A stretch of 64,000 bases of DNA from Bacteroidota bacterium (GTDB lineage Bacteria > Bacteroidota > Bacteroidia > NS11-12g > UBA9320): contig WGNA01000008.1 of NCBI GenBank assembly GCA_016124755.1, positions 124,001 through 188,000 of the forward strand. Reading direction: 5' to 3'. This document shows positions 8,860 to 62,800 of this stretch, piece after piece. The notes below the pieces were generated by a model. It had not been told where the DNA came from, did no database searches, and was given only the letters and a program-made list of their open reading frames with translations. Within the stretch, counting starts at the first letter, position 1; each line of letters begins with the position of its first letter. A program made the translations under genes and the position numbers.

Positions 8860-8868
8860 AATTGTTTA

Positions 8869-9252: not shown

Positions 9253-9409
9253 GCAAACCTATTGTATATGGAATCTTTTTTTGTCATATTGGTATCAAGA
9301 TCAAAATATTGGGAATTACTAGTTATTTGGATTCCCAATAGGGCAATTTCATTATCCGGTTATCTTAAATCTAATCCCTTATTTTCGTCTGCAATAAGCA
9401 ATTGATGAT

Positions 9410-10875: not shown

Positions 10876-10920
10876 ATAAGTTGTTACACGTAATTTTCAA
10901 AGTCATTCGTCAGTAATTCC

Positions 10921-12021: not shown

Positions 12022-12172
12022 AGATAACAGACGGTTTGTTTATTCTTAGGGTTGGTGAAGTTCTGCAAAAACCTCCGAAGTACAAAATCGTTTTTTGAAT
12101 CTGCAAGACCGGCAAATCAAATCTGCAAAGAACCAATCCATATATTTGCTCAAAGCCACTCAATATTTTAAT

Positions 12173-13015: not shown

Positions 13016-13121
13016 CTTTCAATAAAAATGTTTACACTCGGGCAACCAAATAATAATGACGGGCATCATGCTTATTGTAAGACTGAATTGTTAAATTTGG
13101 CAAGCCTCACAAACCTATTGA

Positions 13122-37503: not shown

Positions 37504-37650
37504 TTCCGGTATTCGCCGGTGATTCCGGTTACCCTTTCCTTCTGAACCTTTGTTTTAAAATGGTGTTAAATCGTCATAAAACCATCGTTTGGTGATTTAA
37601 TCAGATTGATTACTTTTTTTTGCGGCCAAACGTGTGAAAGTATAAGGCTA

Positions 37651-40092
37651 ATGAGTCGTTTAAAAAAGTTTATCCCCCTCACATTCATTGTTTTTCTCTC
37701 AATATTTACCGTTCTGATTTCGATTGAATGGGAAATGGAAATTCCCGGAATGGAAGAAAATGAAGAAGAACCCGGATTTTTTGAGCAGTTCAAATTGATG
37801 AAGCAAAACGAGAATGGCGAATATCCATCCGGTTTGTGGAAAGAGTGGAGCAGACAAACACGATCAATGTTCAAAGCTCAGTTCTTTTCGGATGTTCGGG
37901 AAATTGGTCCCACCAACATCGGTGGCCGAATCCGGGCAATTGCCGTCGATTACGATAACAAAGACCGATGGATTGCAGGCAGTGTTTCCGGTGGAATATG
38001 GGTAACGGAAAATGCCGCTGCCAGTTGGACTCCACTTGATGATGATGCGACTACACTTTCGGTTTCGGCAATTACTCAAAGTCCGTTTAATCACAAGGTA
38101 TTTTATTACAGTACCGGTGAAGTTTCCACAGGGGTTTATATCAACTACGATGGTTACGGCATTTTTAAATCGGTAGATGGCGGGAAATCATTCCAGCATC
38201 TCGATTCCTCTAATGTTACCGGATTTGAGAAAACCTGGGATATTGAACATTCCCGCACCGACAGTAATACATTTTACGTGGCAACCATTGGTAACGGTCT
38301 TTGGAGATCCCGCGACGGAGGTGAATCTTTCGAGCAACTTTTCAAATCTTCCTCCGATATTAATGACGTAGATGCGCTGAACGACGGAACGGTTTACTTT
38401 ACCCGATCCGGAAGTGGTGTTTATCGCTTCAAAGAACAGGATACAGTTCAAATTGAACATCTCAACAACAACGGTTTGCCGACTTCGGCGGTAAGTCGTG
38501 TTGTAGTTGAACCGTGTTTAAGCGATCCGAGTGTTGTATACGCTGCATTTGCCGGAACGGATCGTGCGTCTTTGGCCGGTCTTTATAAATCAACGGATTA
38601 CGGAAAGAGCTTTGTGGAATTAACTACAGGTGGTTCTGCCAGCTACGATCAGACCTGGTATAATTTCCTTTTTAAAGTGGATCCGGAAAACCCGGACTTT
38701 ATTTTAATGGGTGGAGTGAACGCCGAATATTCTAAAGACGGAGGAAAAACCTGGTCGGTTCTTACCAGTGGACATACCGACTTTCACAATGCTTTTTACA
38801 TTCCGGGTACGAGTGATTTCGTAACCGTTTCTGACGGCGGTCTGTACATTCACAACAAAACAACGGCAAGCTCAACCGCCAAAAACGGGAATACCAATCT
38901 GAACATCACCCAGTTTTATTGCGGAGCGTGTTATCCGACCGGCGACAAAGTAATTGTGGGAGCACAGGATAACTGGACATCGATCAATGTGGCCGGTGGA
39001 TCAACCTTTGTGCAGAAGTGGCCCGGCGATGGAGCTTACAATGCTGTTTCGGAAGATGGACAAACCTTATATTGTTCTTCTCAGAACGGCTATTTAGGCC
39101 GGTCGACCAATGGTGGAAATTCATTCCAGAGCATCTATTACGGTTTGGCAAACAAAGTCGGAACAACTGATTTTTGGTTTGTTAATCCGTTTGAATTGAA
39201 TAAACGCGACGCAACAAATGTTTTCTTCCCGACTAAAAATGTTGTAGCCGTAACTTCAAACAGCGGTTCTTCGTGGAAGGTAATTACCAAAACAATTCCC
39301 GGAAATATTTTCTCGATCGGAATAACCAACGAAGAATCACCAACCGTTTATTTCGGTGGCCAGAGCAGTTTGCTGTACCGAATTCCGGATGCAAATAATG
39401 CAACCCCGGGTGATGAGTTCAAAATGTTTACGCTGGCTCCGGCCGAAGCACGTGGTGGTTTTATCGGCAACATTGAAGTGGATCCGAACGATAATTCGAC
39501 CATTTTTCTGGCGATGAATAATACCAGCACTTTACCGAGAATCTGGAAGGTACTCAATGCCGACACAGAATCGCCTACCTGGGTGAATGTTAGTGCAAAC
39601 CTTCCAACCGGACTTCCTGTGAACTGGATTGAAATCGATCCGAAGAACAGTGATCACATCATGATTGCAACGGATTATGGTTTATATGTTACAGTGAACG
39701 GCGGAGGCTGGTGGGAAAAAGAAACGCGAATTCCGAATGTCTATATTTCCATGATCCGGCTTCGGGAATCAGATCGACGACTTTTTATTTTCACATACGG
39801 ACGTGGAGTTTGGGTTGCCGATTTGGAGGAAAATATCTTCTCTTCTTCAAAACTTTCTGCGAATCTTTCGGCCTCGGTTAAAATTTATCCGAATCCTGCC
39901 AGTGACTATGTTCAGATTGAAGGGGCATCCGGTAAATATGAAATTTTCGATTTACAGGGAAGTCAAATCGCAACCGGAACAACAAATTCCGGAGACAAAA
40001 TCCCGACATCATATTTCAAAAACGGGCTGTACTTCATTCGCGTTTACGACCCAAAAGGAACGGTAACCCGAAAGTTGGTTTTACAACACTGA
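37651..40092 (+). CDS. BNR/sortilin-like propeller protein with T9SS type A sorting tail
   Basis: ATG at 37651 gives a signal-anchor-like start (FIPLTFIVFLSIFTVLISI); an upstream ATG at 37606 would place a poor leader before it. The mature part has many BNR/Asp-box-like blades of the VPS10/sortilin-type propeller: GIFKSVDGGKSFQHLDSSN, GLWRSRDGGESFEQLF, GLYKSTDYGKSFVEL, YSKDGGKTWSVL. The last about 75 residues are a type A sorting domain: VKIYPNPASDYVQIEG, YEIFDLQG, YFIRVYDPKGTVTRKLVLQ. It should be exported by T9SS and attached to the cell surface. Possible glycan-binding or adhesin role (inference). Confidence 0.93.
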   Translation: MSRLKKFIPLTFIVFLSIFTVLISIEWEMEIPGMEENEEEPGFFEQFKLMKQNENGEYPSGLWKEWSRQTRSMFKAQFFSDVREIGPTNIGGRIRAIAVDYDNKDRWIAGSVSGGIWVTENAAASWTPLDDDATTLSVSAITQSPFNHKVFYYSTGEVSTGVYINYDGYGIFKSVDGGKSFQHLDSSNVTGFEKTWDIEHSRTDSNTFYVATIGNGLWRSRDGGESFEQLFKSSSDINDVDALNDGTVYFTRSGSGVYRFKEQDTVQIEHLNNNGLPTSAVSRVVVEPCLSDPSVVYAAFAGTDRASLAGLYKSTDYGKSFVELTTGGSASYDQTWYNFLFKVDPENPDFILMGGVNAEYSKDGGKTWSVLTSGHTDFHNAFYIPGTSDFVTVSDGGLYIHNKTTASSTAKNGNTNLNITQFYCGACYPTGDKVIVGAQDNWTSINVAGGSTFVQKWPGDGAYNAVSEDGQTLYCSSQNGYLGRSTNGGNSFQSIYYGLANKVGTTDFWFVNPFELNKRDATNVFFPTKNVVAVTSNSGSSWKVITKTIPGNIFSIGITNEESPTVYFGGQSSLLYRIPDANNATPGDEFKMFTLAPAEARGGFIGNIEVDPNDNSTIFLAMNNTSTLPRIWKVLNADTESPTWVNVSANLPTGLPVNWIEIDPKNSDHIMIATDYGLYVTVNGGGWWEKETRIPNVYISMIRLRESDRRLFIFTYGRGVWVADLEENIFSSSKLSANLSASVKIYPNPASDYVQIEGASGKYEIFDLQGSQIATGTTNSGDKIPTSYFKNGLYFIRVYDPKGTVTRKLVLQH

Positions 40093-42397: not shown

Positions 42398-42462
42398 CCG
42401 ACAGACGGGTACTCGAAGCATTGAGAATTAGAAAGTGCCAAAAACCGGATCGGCTTCGGTCT
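42398..42462 (+). repeat. 65-bp dispersed repeat, copy 3 of 4, abutting the RAYT stop
   Basis: Aligned ungapped with the other copies (GGGTACTCGAA at the 5' side, ATCGGCTTCGGT at the 3' side). CGAAGC can pair with GCTTCG across the copy. The last two bases overlap the TAG stop codon (42461-42463) of the transposase gene on the minus strand. The remaining part of the gap (42322-42397) shows nothing I can name. Confidence 0.8.
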
Positions 42463-43012
42463 ATAAAAAATCAATATCGATTACACCTTTTATTCCCTGA
42501 TAATCTCTCGCACTGCTGTAGAGATAGTATTCCGGTTTGTCAACAATTCCTGCTGCTACGGGATTATTATGCAGGTATGTAAGACACCTGATTTTAATTA
42601 ATGGTGATCTTAGTTCAATTGGATGATTTTCTTGTCTCCAGAATTGATGCGTTTCATTTCTTGAATTGGATTTGCCAGCTGAGCGGAAAACACGTAACAT
42701 CCAGGAACGTCTGCTCTCTTTGCGAAGATTTTCAATTTTGCGCAGGTTTCTAACAGACGTATATTTTTTGAAATCTCGTAAAATGTCACTTAATCGATAG
42801 CCCGCCTTTGCGGAAATGATTAAGTGAAGATGATTGCTCATAATTACCCAGCCATGAATGTTTAATCCTTTTTTCTCCTGACAAAACCTGAGACTTTCAA
42901 CAACAATCTTTCTATATGTTTCTCTTGTGAAAACATCAATCCATTCAACTACCGCGAATGTTATAAAATAAATTCCTTCCTGATTCCTGATTTTATATCC
43001 ACCTGAAGCCAT
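42461..43012 (-). CDS. REP-associated tyrosine transposase (RAYT, Y1_Tnp family)
   Basis: ATG at 43012 (MASGGYKIRNQEGIYF) is the start; a longer frame to 43111 runs into the palindrome. The domain is Y1 HUH type: YFITFAVVEWIDVF (β strand), HGWVIMSNHLHLIISA with the HxH metal-binding pair (HLH), and a C-terminal helical part with YLHNNPVAAGIV. The catalytic Tyr is expected in the IRCLTYLHNN-like helix or the YYLYSSARDY segment. RAYTs are single-copy IS200/IS605 relatives that process REP palindromes. A BIME-like palindrome pair lies 69 bases upstream and a 65-bp repeat directly downstream. Confidence 0.92.
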   Translation of the reverse strand: MASGGYKIRNQEGIYFITFAVVEWIDVFTRETYRKIVVESLRFCQEKKGLNIHGWVIMSNHLHLIISAKAGYRLSDILRDFKKYTSVRNLRKIENLRKESRRSWMLRVFRSAGKSNSRNETHQFWRQENHPIELRSPLIKIRCLTYLHNNPVAAGIVDKPEYYLYSSARDYQGIKGVIDIDFL

Positions 43013-43080
43013 GAAACAAAATTGGCTGTAAACCAAATTTATTTTTAGAATTAAAAAACTAACCGCATCATAAAAAAACC

Positions 43081-43260
43081 ATCCGTCGTCTGCCGTGCAG
43101 GATCGGGCCATGGCGACGACGGATATGTTATTTCCAATAACAATTTTTGAAATTTATTCCGGAGAACAATCTTGTTTATGGCAGTACTTATTTTAAATGT
43201 TCTTATTCAGAACAATGTCCGTTGTCGCCGAAGCACAGGCCGTCCCGCAGACGACAGACA
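43081..43260. repeat. BIME-like pair of REP palindromes upstream of the RAYT
   Basis: Unit 1 has ATCCGTCGTC (43081-43090) inverted as GACGACGGAT (43115-43124), with TGCC/GGC extending the stem. Unit 2 (43216-43260) has TGTCCGTTGTC paired with GACGACAGACA, needing two G-T type pairs. The reverse complement of unit 2 resembles unit 1, so the units are in opposite orientation about 90 bases apart, as in a BIME. The spacing to the RAYT start is 69 bases. Confidence 0.8.
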
Positions 43261-43964: not shown

Positions 43965-46028
43965 CTATTTTTTCTTCCCCTTTTCTTTCCCTTTTGTTTC
44001 CGGAACATAGCGAACAATTAGTGCCGGACTTTCCCGACCTTTTTCGTCAAAAGTGATAATCCTGTATTCGTAGGATTTATCTCCCAAAGCATAAACATCC
44101 GTAAGTTCCAGCTCGTTAGCCTTCATCTCCTTTAACATTATTGATTTACCGGTTTCTATATTTTTTCGGTACACAACAAAACCTGCAACCGGTCCCAATG
44201 CCGGTTTTTCCCATGTAATTATTATTTTTTCATCTTTTAACAAGGCACTTCCGGTAGGCGAGGCGAAAGGTTTTAATGTAGTGTTAAAAGATGTGGCGAC
44301 AGCTTTGGAAAGTGGGCTACGGTTACCGGAAGTATCAATCGCAACAATCTGATAAAACCGCTCACCATCGCTCTGAAGTGTATCTTTAAAATGCAAGGAA
44401 TCACTGCGGCCAATTACCAGAAAGAATTTATCATTTGCTGTTTTTCGTTGAATTTCATATCCGGAAATATCCCCTTCCATATTCGATTCCCAGAAAATCT
44501 GAACCCCGATCCCATTGGGATAAATAGCCGTTATCACCGGAGCCGCCGGCGGAGTTTTATCCGGCAGTGAGGCAAAAATCATTTCCGAAGCTTTTGATCG
44601 GATTCCGTTTTTCCGAACCGAATAAATTACGTATCCGTATTTTCTTTCCGAATTATCTTTCGGATCATCGGTAAAAGTGGTGTTTGTAATTAATGTTTTA
44701 TTTAAAGAAAATCGGGTTTTGTACTGATCATCTGCAGCTCGTTCAATTTCGTAACCCGCGATGTCGTCTGTTTTTACGGCATTCCATGTAATAATGATTT
44801 TGCCGTTGCTGGCTACCGCTTTTATGTTTTCCGGAGCGGGAGGAAGTGTATAATCTTCAAACTCAAACAGCACCGTATCCGAATAGTTTTTTGTTTTTAA
44901 ATCGCCCGCCAGACTGGTAATAAAATAATAATACGCTTTTCCTTTTTGAGCATTAAAGTCAATAATACTGCGACTGGTATCTGTATTTAAATCGGTAACC
45001 GGATGAATTTTAACAAAGGATTTTTTTAAATCTTCACTCCGGTAAACTTCAAAACCGGATGCTTTCGAACTGCCGTTCCAATCAATTTTAACTCTGCCTC
45101 CGTAGGGTTCTATTTTTATATTTCCTGCCGGTAAAGGTTTGCGATCATCTGCCGGTGTGGCTTCAACGGTAAGACTTGCCTCACTTTCAAATCCAAATGC
45201 ATTTACTGCTTTTAATTGATAATAATACGTTTTTCCATTAGTTAAATACCGATCAATATAATTTTGAGTTGTCGCTCCGGATTTTTGATTTCCCGAACTG
45301 ATTTCAACCGGCATCATCCCCTGATAATTTACTTTAACAAAAGGCCCCACCGGATTTTCAGCGCGATAGACATTGTACGAAACAACCTTTCCGGATTTTA
45401 ATAAAGCTGCGTTTTTATCCCATACCAATTCAACCGCTTCATTCATGGGATTGGCCGCTTTTATTAATGCAGATGAAATCATTTCTGTGGTTTTTAAGCC
45501 CACTGATACCGATGACGAATTAGCCCAAACAGTAGAATTTCCATTTACAACTTTTTCAATTTTGTACTGATAATTTCCTGCTGCCTCCGGTTTATCTGAG
45601 TACTCCGTTCCAAGCGCTTTTCCGTATTCCGGATTTATCACACTCAACATTCCGAGAAACGATTTTGAATTTTCATCCGAAACGGCTTTCTGAAAAACTT
45701 CTTCCGTAATGTTCGTTCCGGCTTCTGCTTTAAAAAGGGATGTAAAAACAGCCGCATCTTCGCCCATTACTTTTTTTATGTCCTCCGGCTTTTCGAATCG
45801 GTGTACCGTAATCTCATTCAGCTTTTTCCAGGTCGTTTCGGTTGTTGATTTTCGATATACATCGTAGCCTTCAAGTCCTTTGTCAAAGGCAATTTTCCAT
45901 TTCAGATAAACCGATCCATCTGCAACATACGTGAGCACCCCCTGAGCATAACTCGTATTACAGATAAAGATAAAAACGACACTTGTTAAAAGCGCTTTCT
46001 CCAATTTGATATGTGTCTTTCTCATCAT
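43965..46028 (-). CDS. Exported FN3-repeat protein, third gene of a giant-protein operon
   Basis: A signal peptide (LLTSVVFIFICNTSYAQ) is followed by at least five fibronectin type III-like domains. The recurrent pattern is VYLKWKIAFDKGLEGYDVYR, VELVWDKNAALLKSGKVVSY, VKIDWNGSSKASGFEVYR, IIITWNAVKTDDIAGYEIER, VQIFWESNMEGDISGYEIQR, and IIITWEKPALGPVAGFVVYR. The last 10 residues are Lys/Glu-rich (KGKEKGKKK). No T9SS tail is visible. Start is one base after the stop of the 2446-aa protein, so translation is coupled. Likely periplasmic or surface partner of that protein. Confidence 0.88.
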   Translation of the reverse strand: MMRKTHIKLEKALLTSVVFIFICNTSYAQGVLTYVADGSVYLKWKIAFDKGLEGYDVYRKSTTETTWKKLNEITVHRFEKPEDIKKVMGEDAAVFTSLFKAEAGTNITEEVFQKAVSDENSKSFLGMLSVINPEYGKALGTEYSDKPEAAGNYQYKIEKVVNGNSTVWANSSSVSVGLKTTEMISSALIKAANPMNEAVELVWDKNAALLKSGKVVSYNVYRAENPVGPFVKVNYQGMMPVEISSGNQKSGATTQNYIDRYLTNGKTYYYQLKAVNAFGFESEASLTVEATPADDRKPLPAGNIKIEPYGGRVKIDWNGSSKASGFEVYRSEDLKKSFVKIHPVTDLNTDTSRSIIDFNAQKGKAYYYFITSLAGDLKTKNYSDTVLFEFEDYTLPPAPENIKAVASNGKIIITWNAVKTDDIAGYEIERAADDQYKTRFSLNKTLITNTTFTDDPKDNSERKYGYVIYSVRKNGIRSKASEMIFASLPDKTPPAAPVITAIYPNGIGVQIFWESNMEGDISGYEIQRKTANDKFFLVIGRSDSLHFKDTLQSDGERFYQIVAIDTSGNRSPLSKAVATSFNTTLKPFASPTGSALLKDEKIIITWEKPALGPVAGFVVYRKNIETGKSIMLKEMKANELELTDVYALGDKSYEYRIITFDEKGRESPALIVRYVPETKGKEKGKKK

Positions 46029-46029: not shown

Positions 46030-49000
46030 TCAAATATTGGCCGAATACCCTACATCCAAATCGGTTGAACCACTATAAACCCAAACATTCCAGCTCACTT
46101 TAGCCGAACCTTTCACTTCTACCTGACTCGGACTTGCTTTTAACTGAAGCGCTAATGCCACATTTCCGCTAAGTAAATCTGCATTGCCCAAAGGAGTTTT
46201 GAGATCCACATCCCAATTGCCGTTAAAGGTTGCAGCAGCATTTAAAGTAGAAGTGGAATTCGTGTACAGAAAACTTCCGGTTGCTTTCACATCAATTACC
46301 GCCGCGACCGACACGATGCCGATTCCCATTTCTTTGTTGAGGTTATATGTGAGTTCGCCATTTAATGAAGTTGACCGGTCGGATATTTCAAGACTTGCCG
46401 TTGCATTCACTTTTTGAAGGAACGATCCGGAAATATCCTCACTCCACACATAACGGTTCCGGCTGTCTTTCGGGAAACTGTAATTGATCTGACCGTTAAA
46501 CAGGAAAACAGATCCTTTTTTATCCGGTAAACCAATAAACATTCGTACATAACCGTCGATTTGAGCTGCGGGTTCCCAGGCCAGATTAATTTGCCCTTCT
46601 CCAAACAACGATTCTTCCTTCGTTAATAACCAGACTTTTCCGTACAATGAAAATTTCCCCGGAACCAGCACCATTTCGAGCCTGCTGTTAAATACACTTC
46701 CCGGAGTTGGCAGAACATTGCCGATTCCCGTGATCGCTTTTAAACCGAACGTTGTGTTCAACGACGGACTTCCCGGGGTGCTGCCGATTGGCGGATTGTA
46801 ATGATAACCAACACCACCGCCTATTTCTGTAATTCCGAGTCCGGTTGTGCCGAGCGGGAGAGGAGGTCCTGCATACGCAAGTTCCACATACCAATATGTG
46901 AATGTGTCTTTGTTCGCGGCTTGTGTTCCGATTACCATTTCCCCGGAAATGCCACGCGTTATGCCCGAACCCATTTGAATTCCGAGTTTAAAACTGCCTT
47001 TAAAAACTTCGGTTTCATACGAAAGTTCGCCATCGAACGACACCGGTTTTTTGTCAAACTGAAGTGCGACTTTTTTGAACGTCACGCTCGGGCCCGGATT
47101 TATTTTAATGTCTGCAGCGATTTCACCCATGGCAAAAAATCCGAGTTTGCCATCGAAGCCCAACGAATATTCTTCTTTGGTTTTGGAAAAGGAAATGGAG
47201 TTCACATAGAGTTCGAACCCTTTCCCGAATTTGATCGCCTTATTAACCGACAGATTTTCGGCTTTAATGGAGCCATCCGATTTTAGTTCGAAACCGGTGA
47301 TGTCCATATCTCCATATTTTCGGGAAGAGATCGATGCATTAATCGAAAGGGTTCCGATTTTCTCGGTGCGGTCGTAATTCAATCCGGTTCCGGGTCGCAG
47401 GCTAAAAGTTGTGGCAAGTCGCCGAATGTAAACCGGATTATCCGTGCTGATATCGGCAGTAAAGGCAGAACCGGTAGCTGAAACTAAAATACCGATTTCG
47501 CCTTCGGTATTCCCGCCCGGTTTGAGTGATCCTTTGAATGTTCCGGCTTCTAAACTGTTTTCGTTGAGTTTGATGGCAACACTATCCGCTTTAAATTCAT
47601 ACCCGGCATACGCAAGATCAATGAAATCACCGGTGAGTGAAATTTCGCCGCTTACACCGCCTCGTCCGATTGAAAAGTCTTTAGCATGAAGCGTTGTGGG
47701 TTTCGACGCCGAGGCCTTGCTGAATTCTTCCGGTAGTTCAATTGTTGCCGACGGAATATACACTCCCATGAAATCGAAGCGCAAATTGGATCCGGGCGGA
47801 TTGAGGGAAGCGTGCATATCAATCGAAAGCGAGGCTCCTTCTTTTAGTTTAAAACCACCGATTTCTTTAGCGGGAAGTTGCGAAACGGTTCCCAGAAAAT
47901 TTCCGTCGGGATCGATTACGGCTTCAAAAGCAACGGCATTTTCGTATCCGGGTGGTTTCACCTGACCGGCAATTCCGGCTCCCTGATGTGCATAGATAAA
48001 CAGTGAGTCGAGCGTGAATTCAAAATTCAGAAATGTCTTTTTGAGTTCCGATTCCGATTTCCAGGAAACACTGCCATCCACCGCCAGAAAATCATCTTCT
48101 CCTTTCTGTTCTAAAACCACATTATTGATGGTAAACTTCACCTGTTTCAACGGAAGCAGAACGCCATCCTGAACTTCAACCGCCAGTTTTCCGGAACCGG
48201 TATAAGGTTCGGACGGATCAAATTCTTCATCGGCTTCTACAACAAATGGAGATGACGGAACTCCGATTTTAAAGCGCTTGGCTTTGCTGGTTCCGTATGT
48301 TCCTTTCACTTTTTTCGGACGGGAAACCGGCTGATATTTCACTTCAACATTCGCCTCAACCTCGAGTTCTTTTTCATCGGGGATATCGGTTCCGGTGGTT
48401 CGGGCAATGCCGATGAGTCTGGTCTTGTCTGATGCGGGTTTTACATCACCTTCTCCTCCCGCTTTTTTAAACTCAATTGTGTAATCGTTAATAGCTTTTC
48501 TTTCTTCATCAACGATTCCGGCAATAAATGTAGGAACCTTTGCCCACGGATCCGGTTTGTCTTTTTGCGCGAGTTTATCCGGGAATTTGTATTTGGCAAA
48601 CAAGGCATCATCAACCGAACTGCCTTTGAAAACATCGATCGCAGCATTCCATGCAAATTCCGCCGGACCATTTCCGACTTTCGCCATTTGCAACCGAATT
48701 GGGGAAATCGCCTCAAACGTATCCTGATCCACAACCTGACCGCCGCGCATCCACTTAACCGTTATTTCAAATTTTGCATAACCTTTTCCGAAGTTGAATT
48801 TCACTTTGGCGTATCCGTCTCCATCGGTTTGAACCGCTTTGTTCGGCGTGGTTTCAAAACCAAAGCCGGTTGCATTTCCTTCTTTCAACACCGCCGCATA
48901 TTCCACGGTTTCCTGCGCGAGACCTTTGTGATCACCGGTTACAATTCGCGATTGAATTTCATACGCGGAATCCGCCCGTCCGATCAGGGAATCCGGAACT

Positions 49001-52000
49001 TCAATCAGAACTCCCGGATGTACTTCAATTTTTGATGTTTTGTCTTTGGGTTCATCTTCCGCCAATTCCGACGCGGTGTAAACCAAGCCCACTAATTTTT
49101 CTTCAACCACTTTCGGTTTTGGAACAAAGGAAGGTTCCCATAATGTCTGGTGATGCGACATTCCACCGCCGGGCCCAACTTGTTTGTCAAGCGACCAGGC
49201 CATTGTTCCAAGATCAACAATATCTTCGGTTACCGGAGCCAGAAATGCACAGCCACTTTCTTCCTGTTCGTCTTCGTCGTCGCCTCCGGTGGTAGATTCA
49301 CCCTTTTCACCCTTGTCATCTTTCCCGCGTTCTTTGGTCTTATCTTTCCCGCGTTCCCGGGTTGTATTGTCTCCTTCGGTTTCGGTTTTTGCAGGCGGAT
49401 CGCCACCGGTAACGGGTCTTTCGGTTTTAGTCTGATCCGATCCGGTAACAGGCCTTTCGTCGCCACCCGGAACTTTTATCGCTTCACCTCCATCTTCTTT
49501 TTCATCCGAAAGCGGTTTGCAGGTGTACGACATCTGATCTTTATCGTCTTCAACTCCGGCATTCAGCACCACAACATCTTTGGCCAAAATTCGCTTCTCG
49601 TCTTGCGGAATTACCGGCCATTCTTTCCAGAGCGGTTCTCCTTTTTTATAAGCGAGGGCAATCGTTCTCGGTTCTCTTTTGGCAGTTGCAATTGCAGTTA
49701 CCTCCGGTGGGTCGGCTTTGTCGAATTCAATAAAAGGCAAACAGATATAATCTTCTCGGTTGTCGGGTTTTGTGGGTTTCGCATCAATATTGGCGAAAAG
49801 CGGCGTTCTTCCCTGATATGTTAAAGTGGTGGTGAGTTGGTTGGTTCCGTCTTTCGAACGCCACTGATCCAGATCATCACCTTTGTCGAGCGCTTCGAGT
49901 TTTATCACCACGTTTATTTTTACATTCTCGAATTCTTTCACCAAAAAATCATGGAATTTTTTTCGCGCATCTTCGAGACTGTCTTTTGCTTTTTGAAGAT
50001 CTTCCTCAACCTTTTTGGTTTTCTGATCTTTCTTCAGTTTTGCATCGTCAATTTTTCGAGTTGCCACTGCGATCGCGTCTTCGGCCTGTTTTTTAGAAGC
50101 GTTTAATCCATCGACTTTGGAAGCTTTCTTTTTTACGGCATCATCATTATTTACTAAAGAATCGACATTGTTATTTTTTACCGCATTTTCAAGTTCGGCA
50201 ACCTTGGTTTTATTTTCCTGTACTAATTTTTTATTTTGATTGATGGAGGTTAATGCATTTTCATATTCCGAATTCAGTTCAAACATTTTTTTAATGTATC
50301 GAAAGTGAATTTCCTGTTTCAAGTCATACGCTTCCGACTTTTTATCATAATCATCTTTTGCGTTTTGTGTGGCCAATAATTTAGCATCTTCATCCGCGGA
50401 TTTGGAAGCGCGTTGACTTCTCAGCGTTTGAAGTTCATTGTTTAGATCGTCGATTTGTTTTTGCGTATTGGCTAATGTTTTCTGAGCTGTGGTTAAAGCC
50501 GGAATATCGTCTAAAGATCGCGCCCGGTTCACATCATTCTGATCGCGGTTTTTCTGTTTTTCTTTTTCCTGTATTTCTTCCTCTTTGGCTTTGATATCCC
50601 GATCGATGGCAATGCGTTCATCCGAAGATTTTATCCATGCCTGTTCTTTAGTTTTGAAATCTTCTTCAGCTTCCTGAAGTTTTTTGAATTCTTCTTTTAA
50701 AAGCGAATCGTTTTTTTCTAAAAGTTTGCGGTGATCTTTTATTTCTTTTTTGAGATCTGCACTATCGGCAACCGATTTCTGAACCGCATCTTCGGCTTCT
50801 TTCAGCTTATCTTCATTAGATTTCAGCCTTCGGTTGAGTCGGTCTTTATCGCGGTTTTTGTCGAGACTTTTATTGGTTTTTAAAGAATCCAATTGCTTTT
50901 GGGCGCCTTTTAAATCTTCGTCTATTTTTTTAATCCGGATTTTATTTTGTTGAATTTCAACCAAGGCATTTCCAATATCAAATAGTTCGGATGTGAGATC
51001 GCTTTGCAATTGTTCCTTTCTCGCATAGGCTAATTTTAACGAATCTTCCGCGGCTTCCACCTTATCGAGAAGTCGTTCGAATTCTGCCCGGTTCATGATG
51101 TTTTCAAGCGGCGGAGGAATGTAATAGGCATAGGGCCCGACAGCAGTTTTAGACGGACTTTTTAACGCTGTTAATTTTGCTTTTAGCGAATCCAATAAAG
51201 CACGTGCAGCTTTTAATTCGTCCTGCAATCGTTTTTGTTCGGCTTTGAGATCACGCTCTTTTTGATCTAATTGGGTTTTCTGATTTTCAAGTCCGGTTTT
51301 AATATTTTCTAAAATCGATTTTTCCTGCCGAGCCGTATTAATTTCTCCCTGCAATTTTGCAATCCGTGCATTCAAATCATTAATCTGATCTCTTTTAGAA
51401 CTTATGGAATCGGCCAGATCTTCAAGTCCGGAGTTCAAACTTCTGATTTTGGATGTTGAGACATTAATTTGTTCTAAATATTTTTCTCGATTCAAAAGCG
51501 TACTGTCTTCCCGCGATTGTTTCATTTTCTGAAGTTCCGCTTCCAAACCGGCGATACGTTTGGAAATAGCATCGACTGTATTTTTAAGAACTTGTTTTTG
51601 ATTTTCTAATGTAGAAATGGTCTGATTAAACCGGTTCACTTCCGACAGATATGCCGAATTCGCATTATTAACTGCATCCTTTTTGGCATTTAATCCCGAT
51701 TGAAGTAACCGCAATTCGTCTCGCGCTTTATTGAGTGCATTTAAAATATTCTGATCAATCACAACCGATTGAGTCGAAAGTCCCTGCATCGTGTTTCGAT
51801 ACGAATCCGCAGAACCTTGAACCACGGCAATTTGTTGACGACAAGTTACGGCATCATTCCCACTCAACTGCGAACAGGCGGAACTCAATGAAGCCAGAAC
51901 CTGATTGAGTTTTACACTAAAATCTCCAAAAGCTGCAGTGCGTTGTCCGGAATTAATTGTGGTTAAAATTTTCAGTGCTTCGGCATTGGCGTCCTTCGCT

Positions 52001-53370
52001 TGTTGTGCAGCGTTCGAAACCGGATGTTGCGCAAGGAACGATGTTAATTTTAACATATAATCCTGTTTCCATTGCAGGTACGAACGGATATTCGGATTCG
52101 CAAAAAGACGACTTTCCAGATCGTTAATCTCTTTCGTTTTTGCTGTGATCGCCGTTTGCGAAACATTGTATTGTGTAGCGGCGGTTTCAACTGCATTTAA
52201 TTTGGAATTAATTGAGTTTGTAAACTGATCGGATTGCCTGGCAATTTCCTCTTCTTTAGAATTTAATTGTTGCTGTGCGTTGGTTAGCTTGTCTTGTTCA
52301 ACGGCTATTTCATTAATTTTTGTGGTTTCGGCAGAAGAAGGTTTGCCTTCCAGAATGGCCTGTAAGGAATCAATTTCCTTCTGCGTTTCGGTGATTTCGG
52401 ATTGTTTGGATTTAACGTCTGAAAGAAAATCATCTAATCGACTCTGTTTGTCGCGTAGCGCATTTGACGCCGAATCAAGTTTGGTTTGCAACGAATCGAT
52501 CGATCGTTGTTTCCGGTTAATGGCTTCCTGTGTTTTTCGGATTTTTTCATCTAATGCGGCTTTCTGTTTCGGAATGGAATCCAATTCCGGTGGAATTTCA
52601 GAAAGCCGTGATTCCAATCGGGCGATTTCTTTTAAAATGCTGTCAATCTGCTTTTCCGTTTTATCAATGTCGTTTGCTTTAAAAGGCGACTCCAACGAAC
52701 CTTCTCCGGAAATTAATGTCCATTTAAATTCTTTGATTTCGTCGCGAACCGGCATATCGTAAATACTGGTATTGCCGCCGCACCCCGGACATTCATAGCG
52801 AATGAAATCCCAGTCGATGCCTTCTGCCCGCATGGGAACCGCACGTGGGTAAAGGAATTTTCCCGGTTCGTCAACGTGCATTCCAAGCGCGATTTCCGGT
52901 CCTTTGTCGGGAGTTAGGGTTGCCAAAAGACAACCGCCTCCGGTGGAATCTCCCGGTGTACAGAAAATGGAAGGAGTCGATAAAACATTTATTCCGGTTT
53001 TAAAATCATAGGATTCTACCACCCAGGCGTAACAGGTATTCTTTTCCGGAAGCGGAATATTTTCCGGCCATGTGGTAAATGTATTATCGAGATTATAAGA
53101 AGTTACAATCGGTTGATTCGCCCGCATGGCGGTGGATGGCGTTTGCCCGTCTAAAATTTCGTAAACCAGAAAATTGTAGGTTGGGGGTTCTTCTCCGATC
53201 GGCATCGGCGGTGTCCAGCGAAACTGTGGACGAACACCTTCCTGAATAGTTTCCCCGCTGATCGGAAATAATAATAAAGGAGGATTTACATCGGTGTTCT
53301 GCGCTTTTAAATAATCGGAATACATCAGACTAATTAAAATGAACAGCGATATGTATTTCCATCCGCGCAT
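46030..53370 (-). CDS. 2446-aa exported protein with very long coiled coil and β-rich C-terminal half
   Basis: A signal peptide (ISLFILISLMYSDYLKAQ) is followed by an FN3-like N-terminal domain (about 25-165: GVRPQFRWTPPMPIGEEPPTY). About residues 230-1145 are almost continuous coiled coil (heptads rich in Leu, Lys, Glu, Gln), with a break near 740 (GPYAYYIPPPLENIM). A low-complexity acidic/basic linker (about 1290-1370, ERPVTGSDQTKTERPVTGG) leads to about 1080 residues of β-strands (AGYEFKADSVAIKLNE, GFELYVNSISFSKTKEEYSL). The N-terminal domain resembles part of TANFOR-type proteins of Bacteroidota. No T9SS tail seen. It lies between an outer-membrane barrel and an FN3 protein in one operon and is likely a surface or periplasm-spanning component. 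Confidence 0.9.
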   Translation of the reverse strand: MRGWKYISLFILISLMYSDYLKAQNTDVNPPLLLFPISGETIQEGVRPQFRWTPPMPIGEEPPTYNFLVYEILDGQTPSTAMRANQPIVTSYNLDNTFTTWPENIPLPEKNTCYAWVVESYDFKTGINVLSTPSIFCTPGDSTGGGCLLATLTPDKGPEIALGMHVDEPGKFLYPRAVPMRAEGIDWDFIRYECPGCGGNTSIYDMPVRDEIKEFKWTLISGEGSLESPFKANDIDKTEKQIDSILKEIARLESRLSEIPPELDSIPKQKAALDEKIRKTQEAINRKQRSIDSLQTKLDSASNALRDKQSRLDDFLSDVKSKQSEITETQKEIDSLQAILEGKPSSAETTKINEIAVEQDKLTNAQQQLNSKEEEIARQSDQFTNSINSKLNAVETAATQYNVSQTAITAKTKEINDLESRLFANPNIRSYLQWKQDYMLKLTSFLAQHPVSNAAQQAKDANAEALKILTTINSGQRTAAFGDFSVKLNQVLASLSSACSQLSGNDAVTCRQQIAVVQGSADSYRNTMQGLSTQSVVIDQNILNALNKARDELRLLQSGLNAKKDAVNNANSAYLSEVNRFNQTISTLENQKQVLKNTVDAISKRIAGLEAELQKMKQSREDSTLLNREKYLEQINVSTSKIRSLNSGLEDLADSISSKRDQINDLNARIAKLQGEINTARQEKSILENIKTGLENQKTQLDQKERDLKAEQKRLQDELKAARALLDSLKAKLTALKSPSKTAVGPYAYYIPPPLENIMNRAEFERLLDKVEAAEDSLKLAYARKEQLQSDLTSELFDIGNALVEIQQNKIRIKKIDEDLKGAQKQLDSLKTNKSLDKNRDKDRLNRRLKSNEDKLKEAEDAVQKSVADSADLKKEIKDHRKLLEKNDSLLKEEFKKLQEAEEDFKTKEQAWIKSSDERIAIDRDIKAKEEEIQEKEKQKNRDQNDVNRARSLDDIPALTTAQKTLANTQKQIDDLNNELQTLRSQRASKSADEDAKLLATQNAKDDYDKKSEAYDLKQEIHFRYIKKMFELNSEYENALTSINQNKKLVQENKTKVAELENAVKNNNVDSLVNNDDAVKKKASKVDGLNASKKQAEDAIAVATRKIDDAKLKKDQKTKKVEEDLQKAKDSLEDARKKFHDFLVKEFENVKINVVIKLEALDKGDDLDQWRSKDGTNQLTTTLTYQGRTPLFANIDAKPTKPDNREDYICLPFIEFDKADPPEVTAIATAKREPRTIALAYKKGEPLWKEWPVIPQDEKRILAKDVVVLNAGVEDDKDQMSYTCKPLSDEKEDGGEAIKVPGGDERPVTGSDQTKTERPVTGGDPPAKTETEGDNTTRERGKDKTKERGKDDKGEKGESTTGGDDEDEQEESGCAFLAPVTEDIVDLGTMAWSLDKQVGPGGGMSHHQTLWEPSFVPKPKVVEEKLVGLVYTASELAEDEPKDKTSKIEVHPGVLIEVPDSLIGRADSAYEIQSRIVTGDHKGLAQETVEYAAVLKEGNATGFGFETTPNKAVQTDGDGYAKVKFNFGKGYAKFEITVKWMRGGQVVDQDTFEAISPIRLQMAKVGNGPAEFAWNAAIDVFKGSSVDDALFAKYKFPDKLAQKDKPDPWAKVPTFIAGIVDEERKAINDYTIEFKKAGGEGDVKPASDKTRLIGIARTTGTDIPDEKELEVEANVEVKYQPVSRPKKVKGTYGTSKAKRFKIGVPSSPFVVEADEEFDPSEPYTGSGKLAVEVQDGVLLPLKQVKFTINNVVLEQKGEDDFLAVDGSVSWKSESELKKTFLNFEFTLDSLFIYAHQGAGIAGQVKPPGYENAVAFEAVIDPDGNFLGTVSQLPAKEIGGFKLKEGASLSIDMHASLNPPGSNLRFDFMGVYIPSATIELPEEFSKASASKPTTLHAKDFSIGRGGVSGEISLTGDFIDLAYAGYEFKADSVAIKLNENSLEAGTFKGSLKPGGNTEGEIGILVSATGSAFTADISTDNPVYIRRLATTFSLRPGTGLNYDRTEKIGTLSINASISSRKYGDMDITGFELKSDGSIKAENLSVNKAIKFGKGFELYVNSISFSKTKEEYSLGFDGKLGFFAMGEIAADIKINPGPSVTFKKVALQFDKKPVSFDGELSYETEVFKGSFKLGIQMGSGITRGISGEMVIGTQAANKDTFTYWYVELAYAGPPLPLGTTGLGITEIGGGVGYHYNPPIGSTPGSPSLNTTFGLKAITGIGNVLPTPGSVFNSRLEMVLVPGKFSLYGKVWLLTKEESLFGEGQINLAWEPAAQIDGYVRMFIGLPDKKGSVFLFNGQINYSFPKDSRNRYVWSEDISGSFLQKVNATASLEISDRSTSLNGELTYNLNKEMGIGIVSVAAVIDVKATGSFLYTNSTSTLNAAATFNGNWDVDLKTPLGNADLLSGNVALALQLKASPSQVEVKGSAKVSWNVWVYSGSTDLDVGYSANI

Positions 53371-55079
53371 CAGAAGCGATAATTAAGGGTGAAGCGGTTG
53401 AGGAATTCATTCATTGTCGGTACGGTTGCGCCTTCGCCGTACGAAAAATGGTTGTTCGAAACATTTACTTCAGCTTGAAGTTTTTTAGAAATGGAATACC
53501 GAACCGATATATCGTAAAACTTCCGATTGCCCAATGTGACTCCGTTGTTGGCGGTTTTGGCCAACGTATATGCCGCACGAGCCGACATTTTGTTTTTTAA
53601 TACATTAGCCATTGCAGATAAGGTGGCGGAGTTCAGGTTATAATCTCGTCCAGGCTGCCGAAACCGATAACTTCCAAGCATAATTCCGCCGGTATATTTT
53701 TTAATCTGTGCATTGTATTTCACATAAATGTTGGTGATTTTATTGTCGTTAACCGCGTCGGTTGCTGCCGTTAAATCATTGTAATTGTCGAGCAATAAGC
53801 CGAGTGATACCGTGTGTTTAAGTCCGAATTTATCAAAGTGGTAAACCGGAATTACGGAAATGGTACGGGCGATAATCTGAATATTAAAAGTATCATTAAT
53901 GGTATTGGTGCGAACGCCGTAATTCGCCACATTAAAATTCACATCCAGATTTTTGATGGGCAGATAAACACCACCGATGTTCACGATTAACTGACTGGTT
54001 CTGGTGCCAGCCGATCTGCCGGAAACATTATTCGCCCGTCGTCCGATCACACCTTTAAGCGTGAGTTTTTTATTTAGAAAATAACCGTATGGGGAAACGG
54101 TAAGATCAAAAATATCGGAAGCCTGAAACGGATATCCGATCATTACGTAATCCTGCCCGATGGATTTAGCCATAAATTTTAATCCGTACAATTTTTTGTG
54201 ATAATCAAATTCCACCAAACCGGCCATACCGCTCACGCCGCCGGAATTGGAAGGTAATGCCAGCGCTGCCGGAGAGAATTCATTTTTAATCGAATCCACA
54301 TTTTTATTATAGGTGAAAGCATTATTTCCGATTTCACATTTGAGGGCGATGTCTTTGGTGAGGTTATAAATTCCGTCAAGACTAATAATCAAACCTTTTT
54401 GCGGAAGATCAAAATACACGGGGGGAATGCTGTCGACGGAATTAATGCGATCATTTACAGAAACTACATTCAGCGCGATGTACTGTTTGTCTCTGAACTT
54501 TTTTGCGACACGACCGGTGATCATGTACTTTTTGAAATTGACATTTTCTATCGGATTCTGACTTGTTCCGAAATTTAGCCGGAAGGAATAATTGTCGTTT
54601 TCATACGTACCGCCGGCACCAAAAATCTGAAGATCGCCGACAGATAAAGTTGAATACACCGGGGTATGACTTCCGAGATCGAGTTTTACACCGCGAATAG
54701 TCGGGGAGATGCGGATTATATTTCCGGGATACCGGAGAAACTGCCAGAAGTCAGGATTTTTGGGAGCGGGAAAAATCGGGCTGATGGTGTTGTTGGAAAG
54801 TGAAATGGTGATCGGTATTTTCAGATCGTAGGCCGTGAGTTCCGCGAACATATTAAACCGGCTGTAGTTTTTGGGACGTCGGGAGTAGGCCGGTGTTCCG
54901 GGATCGGATTTGAAAGAGTAGTATTGATGGAAGAAATTGGTGTTTCCGCGAAGCGAAATATTATCAGTGAATTTGATTTGCGCCTGAAGGGGAAGAACGA
55001 AAATCGGAACTGATAGAAGGAGGAAAATCCATCGGGCGGGCAGTTTCAGAATTTCGGGTCTTCGGGGCATTGCGGGCAC
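53370..55079 (-). CDS. Outer-membrane β-barrel protein, first gene of the giant-protein operon
   Basis: A signal peptide (WIFLLLSVPIFVLPLQAQ) precedes about 540 residues of amphipathic strands ending in a classic terminal Phe (RFTLNYRF). Strand examples are FNMFAELTAYDLKIPITISL, YSFRLNFGTSQNP, HTVSLGLLLDNYNDL and ISVRYSISKKLQAEVNVSNN. The size and end suggest an outer-membrane barrel of about 20 or more strands. Its stop overlaps the giant protein's start by one base. It could be the anchor or pore for the giant coiled-coil protein. No named family is assigned. Confidence 0.82.
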   Translation of the reverse strand: MPAMPRRPEILKLPARWIFLLLSVPIFVLPLQAQIKFTDNISLRGNTNFFHQYYSFKSDPGTPAYSRRPKNYSRFNMFAELTAYDLKIPITISLSNNTISPIFPAPKNPDFWQFLRYPGNIIRISPTIRGVKLDLGSHTPVYSTLSVGDLQIFGAGGTYENDNYSFRLNFGTSQNPIENVNFKKYMITGRVAKKFRDKQYIALNVVSVNDRINSVDSIPPVYFDLPQKGLIISLDGIYNLTKDIALKCEIGNNAFTYNKNVDSIKNEFSPAALALPSNSGGVSGMAGLVEFDYHKKLYGLKFMAKSIGQDYVMIGYPFQASDIFDLTVSPYGYFLNKKLTLKGVIGRRANNVSGRSAGTRTSQLIVNIGGVYLPIKNLDVNFNVANYGVRTNTINDTFNIQIIARTISVIPVYHFDKFGLKHTVSLGLLLDNYNDLTAATDAVNDNKITNIYVKYNAQIKKYTGGIMLGSYRFRQPGRDYNLNSATLSAMANVLKNKMSARAAYTLAKTANNGVTLGNRKFYDISVRYSISKKLQAEVNVSNNHFSYGEGATVPTMNEFLNRFTLNYRF

Positions 55080-59885: not shown

Positions 59886-62800
59886 CTAATTGTTAAATAT
59901 TGCAACACGAAAATTCACGAAAGCTGATTCTGAACGGATCATTACTGTATAGATGCCGTCCGGAATATCCTCATCAAAAATCATAACTGTAGTGTTCACA
60001 TATTCCCGTTCACTTACAGTCTTGCCGGCAATATCGATGAGATTCAATTTGTAATTATCAGGAGATGCATTAGTGTAAATTGCAAACCGCCCATTATTGG
60101 GGTTTGGGATCAGCCAGGCGACATTTCGGAGATCTTTCAGTGCAATGTTCCCCGATTTAAAATTGAAACATTCCGTTGTATCCGAGCAACCGCCAAAACT
60201 TAAAATAGCAGAATAATTGCCCGAATTAGTTGGATAATATTTTCTGTTATTCTCTCCTTTAATTTTTGATTTCGTATCGCAATCATACCATTGGATTTTC
60301 CCTCGGGTTTCCTGACACAATATTCCACTGTCTTCCTGGATTACGGAGCCTGACAGATTTGCGATATCCACATCGTAAACATTAAACTGAGAGCATCCAC
60401 TTAATAAATGGGTTGTGTCTTTGTACGTGCCACTGGTTGTCCATTTTTTACCTGATAAAGATCGAAACACCTGACAAACTGTATCACTGAAATGGATTGA
60501 AGTATCGTAATTAATAGTTACCAACATCTCGATCAGAGAATCGCAACCGATTGATGAATGAAATGTATCTGTATATATTCCTGAATGGACAATTTCCTTT
60601 CCTGAAGGTGAAGTAAATAGGTTGCAAGCCTGAAAATCAGCATAATTTTTTTCAGCGTATCCTATATTAATATCCATTGTAAGCACGGAATCGCATCCTG
60701 TTGAACTAATGAGTGTATCGGTGTAGAATCCGGAATATCTAATCAATTGACCAGATGGTGTGATGTAAGATTTACAGGAATTAATTTGTATTGTATCCGA
60801 AAAACCGGAGTTAATGGTAAGATTCAATTGATTAATTGTCTGAAAGGTATCACATCCGAAATTAATGAAGTTCACTTCTTTGTAAATGCCGGATTTTGAA
60901 TACACGGTTCCATTTGGACTTTTATATGCACCACAATTATTTCGCTCTTCAATGGTGGGAATTTCAATCGTTTTACAACCGTGTTTCGGGTAAAAAACGA
61001 ATCCGCATTCGGGTACGAATGAAACCAAGTTTGAATTTGTGTAATATGGAAAGTGAGGACTAACAATGTTTCCAAAATCACGATAATTAATCTGGTATTT
61101 TTCATACATTGGAAATGTTTTATGCAAAGCTATACGTCCGTTTTTAACGGTCATTCGATTGAAATAATCAATTCGGTAGCCATCAAAATTTACGTTTAGT
61201 CCATTAACAAAGGCAGTCTCACAGTAACCATTTGTGTCGAAACGCGTAACAAAATAATCCGATTCTGTTTGAAATCCGAGAGTATCCCATCCTGTTGAAT
61301 CATGGTTAAAAACCAGATACCCCGGCTTTCTGTCCTGGTTAAAACTCCTTCCCAGAACATATAATTTTCCCTGATCTTTAACGAGGTCATATCCGGCAGA
61401 ATACCGTTGAGGTTGAGTACCGGTTACCCATTGGCAAATTCCATTTTTGTTAACTGAAGCAACATAAAATCTACCGGGATACATGGGGTTTCGGGAGCCG
61501 TCCGCATTCGTTATTACAGCGGCATCTGTTGAATCTCCATAACCGGAAGTGTTCGCTCCTGTAAAGTAAAATCTTCCGTCAGGTTCTGAAATCAGATCAT
61601 TAACTTCAATATTCTGCAATGGAGCTTTAGGCGAAAGAATATTCATATTCCATATTTTCCGTCCGGCAGTATCTAATTTTAAAATAAATACTCTGTGATC
61701 GTCTGAAGTTCCGGCATTACTTATCAGCGTATCAATCGTTTCGTCCCTTCTGTCGTGGGCATAAATGTTACGGAATACATGACCCGCAATCGTAACGTTA
61801 CCAAAGGAATCTCCATGAGCAACTATGTTTTTGGGAATGTTATAGTTGAATAATTCCAAAGGTCGGTGCCATACCAATTTCCCTTCTGCATTAAATTTGG
61901 AAAATGCCCAAAAGCTATTGGCTTTAGTATCTTTATATCCCTGAAGTGAATCGCTTAATATTCCATTTAGATACAATTGAACCTTGGATTCTTGAAATTG
62001 ATTGTAATATGAGCCAAACAACATAAAATCCCCATCCGACATCGGAAAGATATTTACCGGGATAAATAGGTCCTGCCATTTGCTTTTAAGTTCCCAGATT
62101 AATTCACCTTGCTGATTTAATTTTAATATTTGTGAGCTTATGGTTGAATAATCTTTACCAGTGTTATCGGTAAATCCATATGATCGGTTGGCAAGAATAA
62201 TGTTCCCATCAGTGGTGCTGATGAGATCGTTAAATGCCGTAATACTTTGTTGATCAATAGCGTCACATGGTGCTGAACAAATCCATTTCAGGATACCGTT
62301 CTGAGAGTATTTTATCAAACACGATGAAGCATAGGGGAGTTCATAATCCAATCCACCTCTGGAATAAATTTTTTCACCCTGTCTGTAAGTACCGGTGATT
62401 AAATATCCGTCGTCATCCGCAAGTGATAATCTTCTCATTTCCTCAGGATAGGTAATATGGAGTCGATGAAGAGAATCTCCACCAACAAATAAGTTCCAGC
62501 AATCATCGGGAACAGATGCTTCCCGATACACATTGGTGCTTGTTGTTTGACGGATGTCGTGGCAACCGTCATCAGACCACGTTTCAAGGGTAACGGTGAT
62601 TCTTCCGGTTTTACTAAAAACACAACGGGCTTTTCGAACGGAATCTTCTGACCAATCCGGTTTGGGTGAGAAATCCCAGTGAAAGTGTTCGGCATCATCC
62701 GAAAGTGCATTAAAGGCTAATGTGTCTTTAATGTCTGCATTTATATACCGGGAATGAAATTCGGAAGTGACATTTTGAACTTTTATGTAAATAGTTCGGT

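What the first reader, a model, noticed from the sequence alone, without database searches (positions are those of the whole stretch)
46030..55079. Three-gene operon with a 2446-aa coiled-coil giant, an OM barrel and an FN3 protein
The three genes are joined by 1-base overlap or 1-base spacing. The giant has about 915 residues of near-continuous coiled coil; at about 0.15 nm per residue this could extend about 130 nm. It is followed by a Lys/Glu-rich linker and about 1080 β-rich residues, but no T9SS tail. The barrel ends in a terminal Phe. The set looks like one assembly that spans or projects from the outer membrane. The N-terminal domain of the giant resembles TANFOR-type proteins, but the coupling to a barrel and an FN3 protein is not known to me as a described system.
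Basis: partly seen in the sequence, partly recalled or inferred. Interest (0 to 1): 0.62.

Follow-up and report, generated by a model that had tools for sequence, protein, structure and literature searches.

The report
Outer-membrane barrel, coiled-arm giant, FN3 cassette
A rare three-gene set, kept together in unrelated bacteria, encodes a very large outer-membrane pore, a giant protein carrying what looks like a 60-nm folding arm, and a helper protein; it appears to be a non-toxin cousin of a known family of bacterial giant toxins and suggests that this whole family has its own dedicated membrane partner.

Summary
In detail: three minus-strand genes, barrel (53370-55079), 2446-aa giant (46030-53370) and FN3 protein (43965-46028, outside the stated interval), with a 1-base overlap and a 1-base gap. 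The set is a genuine cassette. It recurs complete in four other genomes from at least three families; barrel and FN3 trees independently group the same five cassettes. The barrel models as a ~25/26-strand outer-membrane barrel (pTM 0.64; nearest solved fold MtrB, then pilus ushers), has no Pfam or NCBIfam family, and occurs in 115 of 392 Bacteroidota genomes, always with the T9SS translocon SprA, and in 14/14 genomes with the TANFOR domain. In Flavobacteriaceae-like loci it adjoins giants whose C-terminal halves are hypervariable, consistent with TANFOR polymorphic toxins. The window giant shares their second N-terminal domain and beta-core but has no toxin, no TANFOR match and a conserved C-terminus. 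Its coiled coil splits into four equal ~208-215-residue segments with a YYIPP hinge and a ~117-residue insert, constant in seven proteins at ~24% identity. This implies an antiparallel, elbowed, SMC-like hairpin of ~60 nm, not a 130-nm rod. Mechanism (inferred): surface display or export through, or anchoring on, its own barrel. New variant of a known kind.

The parts
53370..55079 (-). Outer-membrane beta-barrel protein, 569 aa, about 25-26 long strands, signal peptide, terminal Phe
   Evidence: AF2 pLDDT 74, pTM 0.64; MtrB Z 20.4 over 457 residues; ushers next in aligned length; no Pfam/NCBIfam hit
46030..53370 (-). Giant secreted protein, 2446 aa
   Evidence: homologous end to end with L007/L008 giants
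43965..46028 (-). FN3-repeat protein, 687 aa, signal peptide, no T9SS tail, no lipobox seen
   Evidence: (Pfam fn3 5e-13)
53002..53283 (-). Giant residues 30-123: FN3-like N-terminal domain shared with TANFOR-type giants (there placed directly after the TANFOR domain)
   Evidence: hhalign up to 99.0%, E 8e-18
52672..52878 (-). Giant residues 165-233: conserved 'YPRA..D.D..C.GC..W.L.G.GSL' base segment before the coiled coil
52099..52671 (-). Giant residues 234-424: coiled-coil arm 1, lower half
51748..52098 (-). Giant residues 425-541: ~117-aa insert that breaks heptad periodicity (110-121 aa in 7 proteins)
51136..51747 (-). Giant residues 542-745: coiled-coil arm 1, upper half
   Evidence: insert-to-hinge 208-209 aa in all 7 proteins
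51100..51135 (-). Giant residues 746-757: hinge GPYAYYIPPPLE (first Tyr and Pro-Pro invariant)
50500..51099 (-). Giant residues 758-957: coiled-coil arm 2, upper half
49927..50499 (-). Giant residues 958-1148: coiled-coil arm 2, lower half
49516..49926 (-). Giant residues 1149-1285: conserved base segment after the coiled coil (D.WR..D / EPRT.AL.Y..G / W.VI / LAKDV)
49255..49515 (-). Giant residues 1286-1372: Gly/Lys/Glu/Asp-rich linker of variable length
48691..49020 (-). Giant residues 1451-1560: Ig-like domain resembling invasin/intimin Ig domains and complement MG domains
   Evidence: Z 11-12, ~100 residues, rmsd 2.5
46033..47943 (-). Giant residues 1810-2446: beta-core of long antiparallel strands; 1813-2310 shared with TANFOR-type giants

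Best explanation
A dedicated outer-membrane export or anchoring cassette. SHOWN: the genes form a conserved unit; the first encodes a member of a widespread, unnamed family of very large (about 26-strand) barrels that goes with TANFOR-type giants and occurs only in genomes with T9SS; the giant is a distant, toxin-less relative of those giants. STRONGLY INDICATED: its coiled coil is an antiparallel hairpin. Two ~31-nm halves per arm are joined at a YYIPP tip and an elbow with a small domain, rooted in a base domain formed by the conserved segments on either side of the coil, so the arm reaches about 60 nm straight or about 30 nm folded. INFERRED: all three proteins cross the inner membrane by Sec. 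The barrel acts as the giant's own outer-membrane partner, much as PorP/SprF barrels shuttle and anchor type B T9SS substrates, and receives or sheathes the giant through its N-terminal FN3-like domain. The Ig-like/beta-core part and the jointed arm are then displayed on the surface for adhesion or contact with other cells, and the FN3 protein is an accessory of that complex. No catalytic or toxin domain was found.
For: Unit: same three-gene order in L007 and L008, L082/L046 and L086/L041; 29 of 40 top-scoring barrel loci have a >900-aa same-strand ORF within 400 bp, 27 have a giant with the TANFOR-type N-terminus, 18 have giant and FN3; the four barrels nearest the window's are those of the four other coiled-coil cassettes, and so are the four nearest FN3 proteins, rather than the paralogous cassette in the same genome (Mantel r 0.52, 0/5000). 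Barrel: AF2 pTM 0.64; best fold MtrB Z 20.4, 457 residues, ushers 346-386 residues. T9SS link: 115/115 barrel genomes have SprA, none of 73 SprA-less genomes has the barrel; TANFOR genomes 14/14 barrel-positive, P 2e-8. Relationship to TANFOR giants: hhalign 94-99% in many pairs for the beta-core, up to 99% for residues 30-123. Hairpin: segments 207-210, 208-209, 202-212 and 210-218 aa in seven proteins at 23-26% identity, with invariant residues concentrated at the two base segments and the hinge. Precedent: type B CTD substrates need a cognate SprF-like shuttle encoded next door (PMC12618676) and bind PorP-like barrels on the surface (PMC9143113). The one cassette without a barrel (L084) also lacks the TANFOR-linked N-terminal domain.
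Against: No experiment. The giant and FN3 protein carry no known T9SS signal, so export by T9SS is unproven. L084 shows giant plus FN3 in a genome bin with no SprA and no detectable barrel (mis-binning or incompleteness possible). The SprA association is partly phylogenetic. The beta-core model is poor (pTM 0.33).
Confidence: 0.5

Rival explanations
1. Periplasm-spanning machine: the giant stays in the periplasm, its elbowed arm (about 30 nm folded) bridging inner and outer membrane, and the long-stranded beta-core works as a lipid- or glycan-carrying groove feeding the large barrel.
For: Beta-core model resembles LptD/ApoB-type long sheets; the folded arm length is close to a typical periplasm width (general knowledge); no T9SS signal.
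Against: Its relatives include giants with polymorphic, toxin-like C-termini that are thought to act outside the cell (PMC7073777); Ig-like domain of adhesin type; no inner-membrane anchor seen beyond the signal peptide; the fold matches are weak (TM about 0.1-0.2).
Confidence: 0.17
2. Polymorphic-toxin system: the giant is an antibacterial or anti-eukaryotic toxin with an unrecognised C-terminal toxin domain, and the FN3 protein or a neighbour is its immunity partner.
For: Homology to TANFOR giants; barrel-linked giants in Flavobacteriaceae-like genomes lose identity from 50-99% to ~20% in the C-terminal half, and one has a weak TNT toxin match.
Against: C-terminus of the coiled-coil class is conserved (33-54% over the last ~450 residues) with no polymorphism; no toxin domain in Pfam or NCBIfam; the downstream gene is the conserved secreted FN3 protein.
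Confidence: 0.1
3. A simple long adhesin or rod: a parallel coiled-coil stalk, about 130 nm, carrying a beta-rich tip, with the barrel only as membrane anchor.
For: Strong 3.5-residue periodicity over long stretches; beta-rich C-terminus.
Against: Four equal segments around a conserved hinge, near-constant lengths, and conserved segments flanking the coil on both sides are what an antiparallel hairpin predicts and a parallel rod does not require.
Confidence: 0.13
4. Chance neighbours: three unrelated envelope genes that share an operon without forming a complex.
For: Secreted proteins of several kinds are common in this window; the barrel also occurs next to other giants and sometimes without one.
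Against: Order conserved across families; co-segregating trees; overlapping genes in three genomes.
Confidence: 0.07

Closest known systems
TANFOR-domain proteins (TIGR02542), Bacteroidetes polymorphic toxins (Jana, Salomon and Bosis 2020, PMC7073777)
   Same: Shared FN3-like domain near the N-terminus and beta-core; related FN3 proteins, and Fn3 (COG3401) enriched near TANFOR genes; same barrel family next door
   Different: No TIGR02542 match, no toxin domain, no polymorphic C-terminus, and a 915-residue coiled-coil region plus adhesin-like Ig domain added; the paper does not mention a barrel
PorP/SprF shuttle barrels of T9SS type B substrates (PMC12618676, PMC9143113)
   Same: Outer-membrane barrel encoded beside its large surface substrate; restricted to T9SS genomes
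   Different: No sequence match to that family; much larger (about 26 strands); the giant has no type B CTD
MtrB/PioB porins (Mtr electron conduit)
   Same: Closest solved fold, similar strand number (Z 20.4, 457 residues)
   Different: About 10% identity; no MtrB_PioB Pfam match in 40 members; no cytochrome partner seen in the cassette
Chaperone-usher pores (FimD, PapC)
   Same: Large barrel able to pass folded protein; 346-386 residues aligned
   Different: No usher sequence match; no chaperone or pilin genes in the cassette
SMC/MukB/Rad50 coiled-coil arms
   Same: Antiparallel-type arm with hinge and probable elbow, conserved arm length
   Different: Secreted; no ATPase head; similarity is confined to coiled-coil composition
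CdiB/CdiA two-partner secretion
   Same: Barrel plus giant surface protein in one operon
   Different: No POTRA domain (barrel strands start at residue 41); no haemagglutinin repeats

Membership tests
TANFOR proteins | N-terminal TIGR02542 domain | tested here: not met
   No match in the window giant nor anywhere in its genome at E<=10; distant relatives L010, L061 and L072 match below cut-off
TANFOR polymorphic toxins | Variable C-terminal toxin domain, often with an immunity gene downstream | tested here: not met
   No toxin domain; C-terminus conserved between genomes; downstream gene is the FN3 protein
TANFOR-type giants in the broad sense | Homologous FN3-like domain and beta-core | tested here: met
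   hhalign residues 30-123 and about 1813-2310
T9SS substrates, type A or B | C-terminal TIGR04183 or TIGR04131 sorting domain | tested here: not met
   No match in the giant or FN3 protein; neighbours in the window do match
T9SS-dependent systems | Present only where the SprA translocon is present | tested here: inconclusive
   Barrel: 115/115 with SprA, 0/73 without. But the L084 genome bin has giant and FN3 without SprA
PorP/SprF | Sequence family match, ~300-aa barrel | tested here: not met
   No Pfam/NCBIfam match; 569 aa, about 26 strands
MtrB/PioB | Sequence match to the MtrB_PioB family | tested here: not met
   40 family members scanned against Pfam, only single weak matches to OMP_b-brl_3 and DUF2490
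MtrB/PioB | ~26-strand barrel fold | tested here: met
   a shared fold shows no function
Two-partner secretion TpsB/CdiB | Periplasmic POTRA domains before the barrel | tested here: not met
   Strands begin at residue 41 directly after the signal peptide
SMC proteins | ABC-type ATPase head formed by the two ends | tested here: not met
   Matches to SMC models are partial and far below cut-off; ends are a signal peptide and beta domains
SMC-like antiparallel arm (architecture only) | Chain folds back on itself at a hinge | tested here: inconclusive
   Equal segment lengths around a conserved hinge; no 3D model was made
Lipid-transfer beta-groove proteins (TamB/AsmA, ApoB type) | Long groove of repeated beta-strands | tested here: inconclusive
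   Long-strand model of low confidence, weak ApoB/LptD matches

The most novel reading that the evidence does not exclude
The barrel family is the outer-membrane conduit of a so far undescribed export and display system for TANFOR-type giants in Bacteroidota. One branch delivers polymorphic toxins, another (this window) displays a jointed, SMC-like coiled-coil arm. It hands proteins without a T9SS C-terminal signal to the surface, which would answer how TANFOR toxins leave the cell.
Probability: 0.3. Interest if true: 0.8.

Novelty: new variant of a known kind. Interest (0 to 1): 0.58.

Why it matters
TANFOR proteins were proposed in 2020 as T9SS-exported toxins although they lack the T9SS signal, and how they cross the outer membrane is open. 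A barrel family that accompanies every TANFOR-positive genome tested and sits beside the giants is a concrete candidate partner that can be deleted and tested. The window's version also shows an extracytoplasmic protein whose coiled-coil arm keeps its segment lengths almost fixed at 24% identity, which suggests a mechanical device (reach, hinge, elbow) of a kind known so far mainly from DNA-organising proteins inside cells.

Tried and rejected
Close-relative search with the barrel alone in genome contigs gave no relatives. Pfam, NCBIfam and PDB sequence searches gave no family for barrel or beta-core. SMC and Rad50 matches of the giant are coiled-coil composition, not homology. The 509-aa gene upstream of the L084 giant was aligned as a possible barrel and rejected. 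Promoter and terminator scans were no better than shuffles. Class-wide search for the coiled-coil class found only the window's own copy among 345 genomes, so the class is rare and patchy. Fold searches of the C-terminal half apart from the Ig-like domain are too weak to name a fold; families missing from those lists are not excluded. A literature search for coiled-coil giants on the Bacteroidota surface found nothing relevant. Idea rejected: the cassette as a toxin-immunity pair, because the C-terminus is conserved.
Full report
WHAT IS THERE. Three genes lie head to tail on the minus strand: a 569-aa barrel (53370-55079), a 2446-aa giant (46030-53370) and a 687-aa FN3 protein (43965-46028). 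The barrel and giant share one base; giant and FN3 are one base apart. All three begin with signal-peptide-like sequences. Pfam finds fn3 repeats in the third protein only; the giant gives sub-threshold coiled-coil matches and the barrel nothing. No T9SS type A or B tail is found in giant or FN3, whereas three other large proteins of the window do carry such tails.

THE SET IS A CASSETTE. In two genomes of the same family the order barrel-giant-FN3 recurs with 4-base overlaps and full-length homologues (L007, L008). A scan of about 85,000 species genomes with the C-terminal alignment found the coiled-coil class in only six records: the two above, two Bacteroidota bins of other families with complete cassettes, a Crocinitomicaceae bin cut at the contig end, and an 'Acidobacteria' bin (L081-L086). 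Among 345 genomes of the window's class only the window's own copy appeared, so the class is rare and patchy. The window's genome also has a distant paralogous cassette (L009) and G009 another (L010). For 23 cassettes with both genes, barrel and FN3 distances correlate (Mantel r 0.52, 0 of 5000 permutations). The four barrels nearest the window's, and independently the four nearest FN3 proteins, are those of the other four coiled-coil cassettes, not the paralogue in the same genome. Shared descent of the host genomes contributes to such correlations, but the cassettes come from different families and the paralogues separate cleanly.

THE BARREL. A profile of five barrels matches 115 of 392 complete Bacteroidota genomes. 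Of the 40 best loci inspected, 29 have a same-strand ORF over 900 aa within 400 bp, 27 a giant with a TANFOR-type N-terminus in the stretch, and 18 a giant and an FN3 protein. The family has no Pfam entry. All 115 barrel-positive genomes have SprA and none of 73 SprA-less genomes has the barrel (Fisher 4e-13). All 14 genomes with a TANFOR match are barrel-positive (P 2e-8); phylogeny was not controlled. AlphaFold2 gives a barrel of about 25-26 long strands starting right after the signal peptide (pLDDT 74, pTM 0.64). Its best solved match is MtrB, the 26-strand sheath of the Mtr conduit (Z 20.4, 457 residues, rmsd 5.8). Porins and ushers follow; ushers align over 346-386 residues. This shows a very wide barrel, not a function.

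RELATION TO TANFOR TOXINS. The window giant does not match TIGR02542. Profile comparison places its residues 30-123 on the domain that follows TANFOR in other giants (up to 99% probability) and its residues about 1813-2310 on a beta-core in the middle of those giants (94-99% in many pairs). In Flavobacteriaceae-like loci, barrel-linked giants are 45-99% identical over the first ~1000 residues and then fall to about 20-25%, the mark of polymorphic toxins, as described for TANFOR proteins (PMC7073777); one has a weak TNT toxin match. Coiled-coil giants instead stay conserved to the last residue. That paper reports Fn3 and T9SS-tail genes enriched near TANFOR genes and hypothesises T9SS export; the word 'barrel' does not occur in it.

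THE ARM. The coiled coil is flanked by two conserved, coil-free segments (165-233 and 1149-1285) that hold most of the invariant residues, together with the motif YYIPPPLE at 749-756. A ~117-residue insert at 425-541 breaks the heptad signal. In seven proteins with 23-26% identity to the window's the distances are: base to insert 207-210, insert to hinge 208-209, hinge to a midpoint at 957 202-212, midpoint to base 210-218. The insert in arm 1 faces the midpoint of arm 2, which carries the only proline of arm 2 in the window's protein; that proline is not conserved in the relatives. The simplest reading is one chain folding back on itself at YYIPP, with an elbow half way, rooted in one base domain: about 60 nm long if straight and about 30 nm if bent. 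The 130-nm figure assumed one straight pass. This is an inference from lengths and conservation; no coordinates were available.

THE C-TERMINAL HALF. The model of residues 1375-2446 is of low global confidence (pLDDT 65, pTM 0.33). One domain, residues 1451-1560, is clear: an Ig-like fold matching invasin, intimin and complement MG domains (Z 11-12, ~100 residues, rmsd 2.5). The rest is long antiparallel strands with weak matches to LptD, ApoB and barrels, which do not settle whether it is a groove, a barrel or a stack.

HOW IT PROBABLY WORKS. Type B T9SS substrates need a cognate SprF-like barrel encoded next door for secretion and bind such barrels on the surface (PMC12618676, PMC9143113). 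By analogy, not homology, I propose that this larger barrel is the dedicated outer-membrane partner of TANFOR-type giants, engaging their N-terminal region, and that in the window's branch the toxin half has been replaced by a jointed arm plus an adhesin-like part, with the FN3 protein as an accessory. One cassette without a detectable barrel, in a bin without SprA, has also lost the TANFOR-linked N-terminal domain (L084). That fits the docking idea but is a single case, may be a binning error, and weakens any claim that T9SS is essential. A periplasm-spanning machine remains the main rival.

VERDICT. The set is a real, rare, conserved cassette, a new variant of the TANFOR-type systems, and it points to an unnamed barrel family as their missing outer-membrane partner.

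Noticed in passing
L009 (G000:C21:28000-47900), barrel 9395-11176, giant 3660-9386, FN3 1454-3670: The window's genome holds a second, distant barrel-giant-FN3 cassette with a 1908-aa giant without coiled coil; G009 also has a second one, in the order giant, FN3, barrel (L010).
   Followed up: partly
L047-L051, L054, L057, L058, L077: In Flavobacteriaceae-like genomes the barrel carries an extra ~240-residue C-terminal extension with helical character; it is absent from the window's barrel.
   Followed up: partly
L084 (JAFGTD010000156.1): Coiled-coil giant and FN3 gene in a bin labelled Acidobacteria that has no SprA and no detectable barrel: horizontal transfer, incompleteness or mis-binning.
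   Followed up: partly
L064 and L067 (two contigs of G304): Two nearly identical barrel plus ~1570-aa giant loci in one genome; the giants are 84-100% identical along their length.
   Followed up: no
window 12095-18428 +: 306-aa outer-membrane-like protein followed by a 1768-aa PKD-repeat protein with a T9SS type B sorting domain: another substrate with a possible cognate partner.
   Followed up: partly
window 32980-34014 -: 344-aa protein that by eye resembles PorP/SprF barrels, without a type B substrate next to it; NCBIfam gives no match.
   Followed up: partly
window 37606-40092 + and 59886-63884 -: Two T9SS type A substrates (828 and 1332 aa) flank the region; SprA itself is on contig C1.
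   Followed up: yes
window 42461-43111 -: By eye a REP-associated (Y1-type) transposase, about 850 bases beyond the FN3 gene.
   Followed up: no
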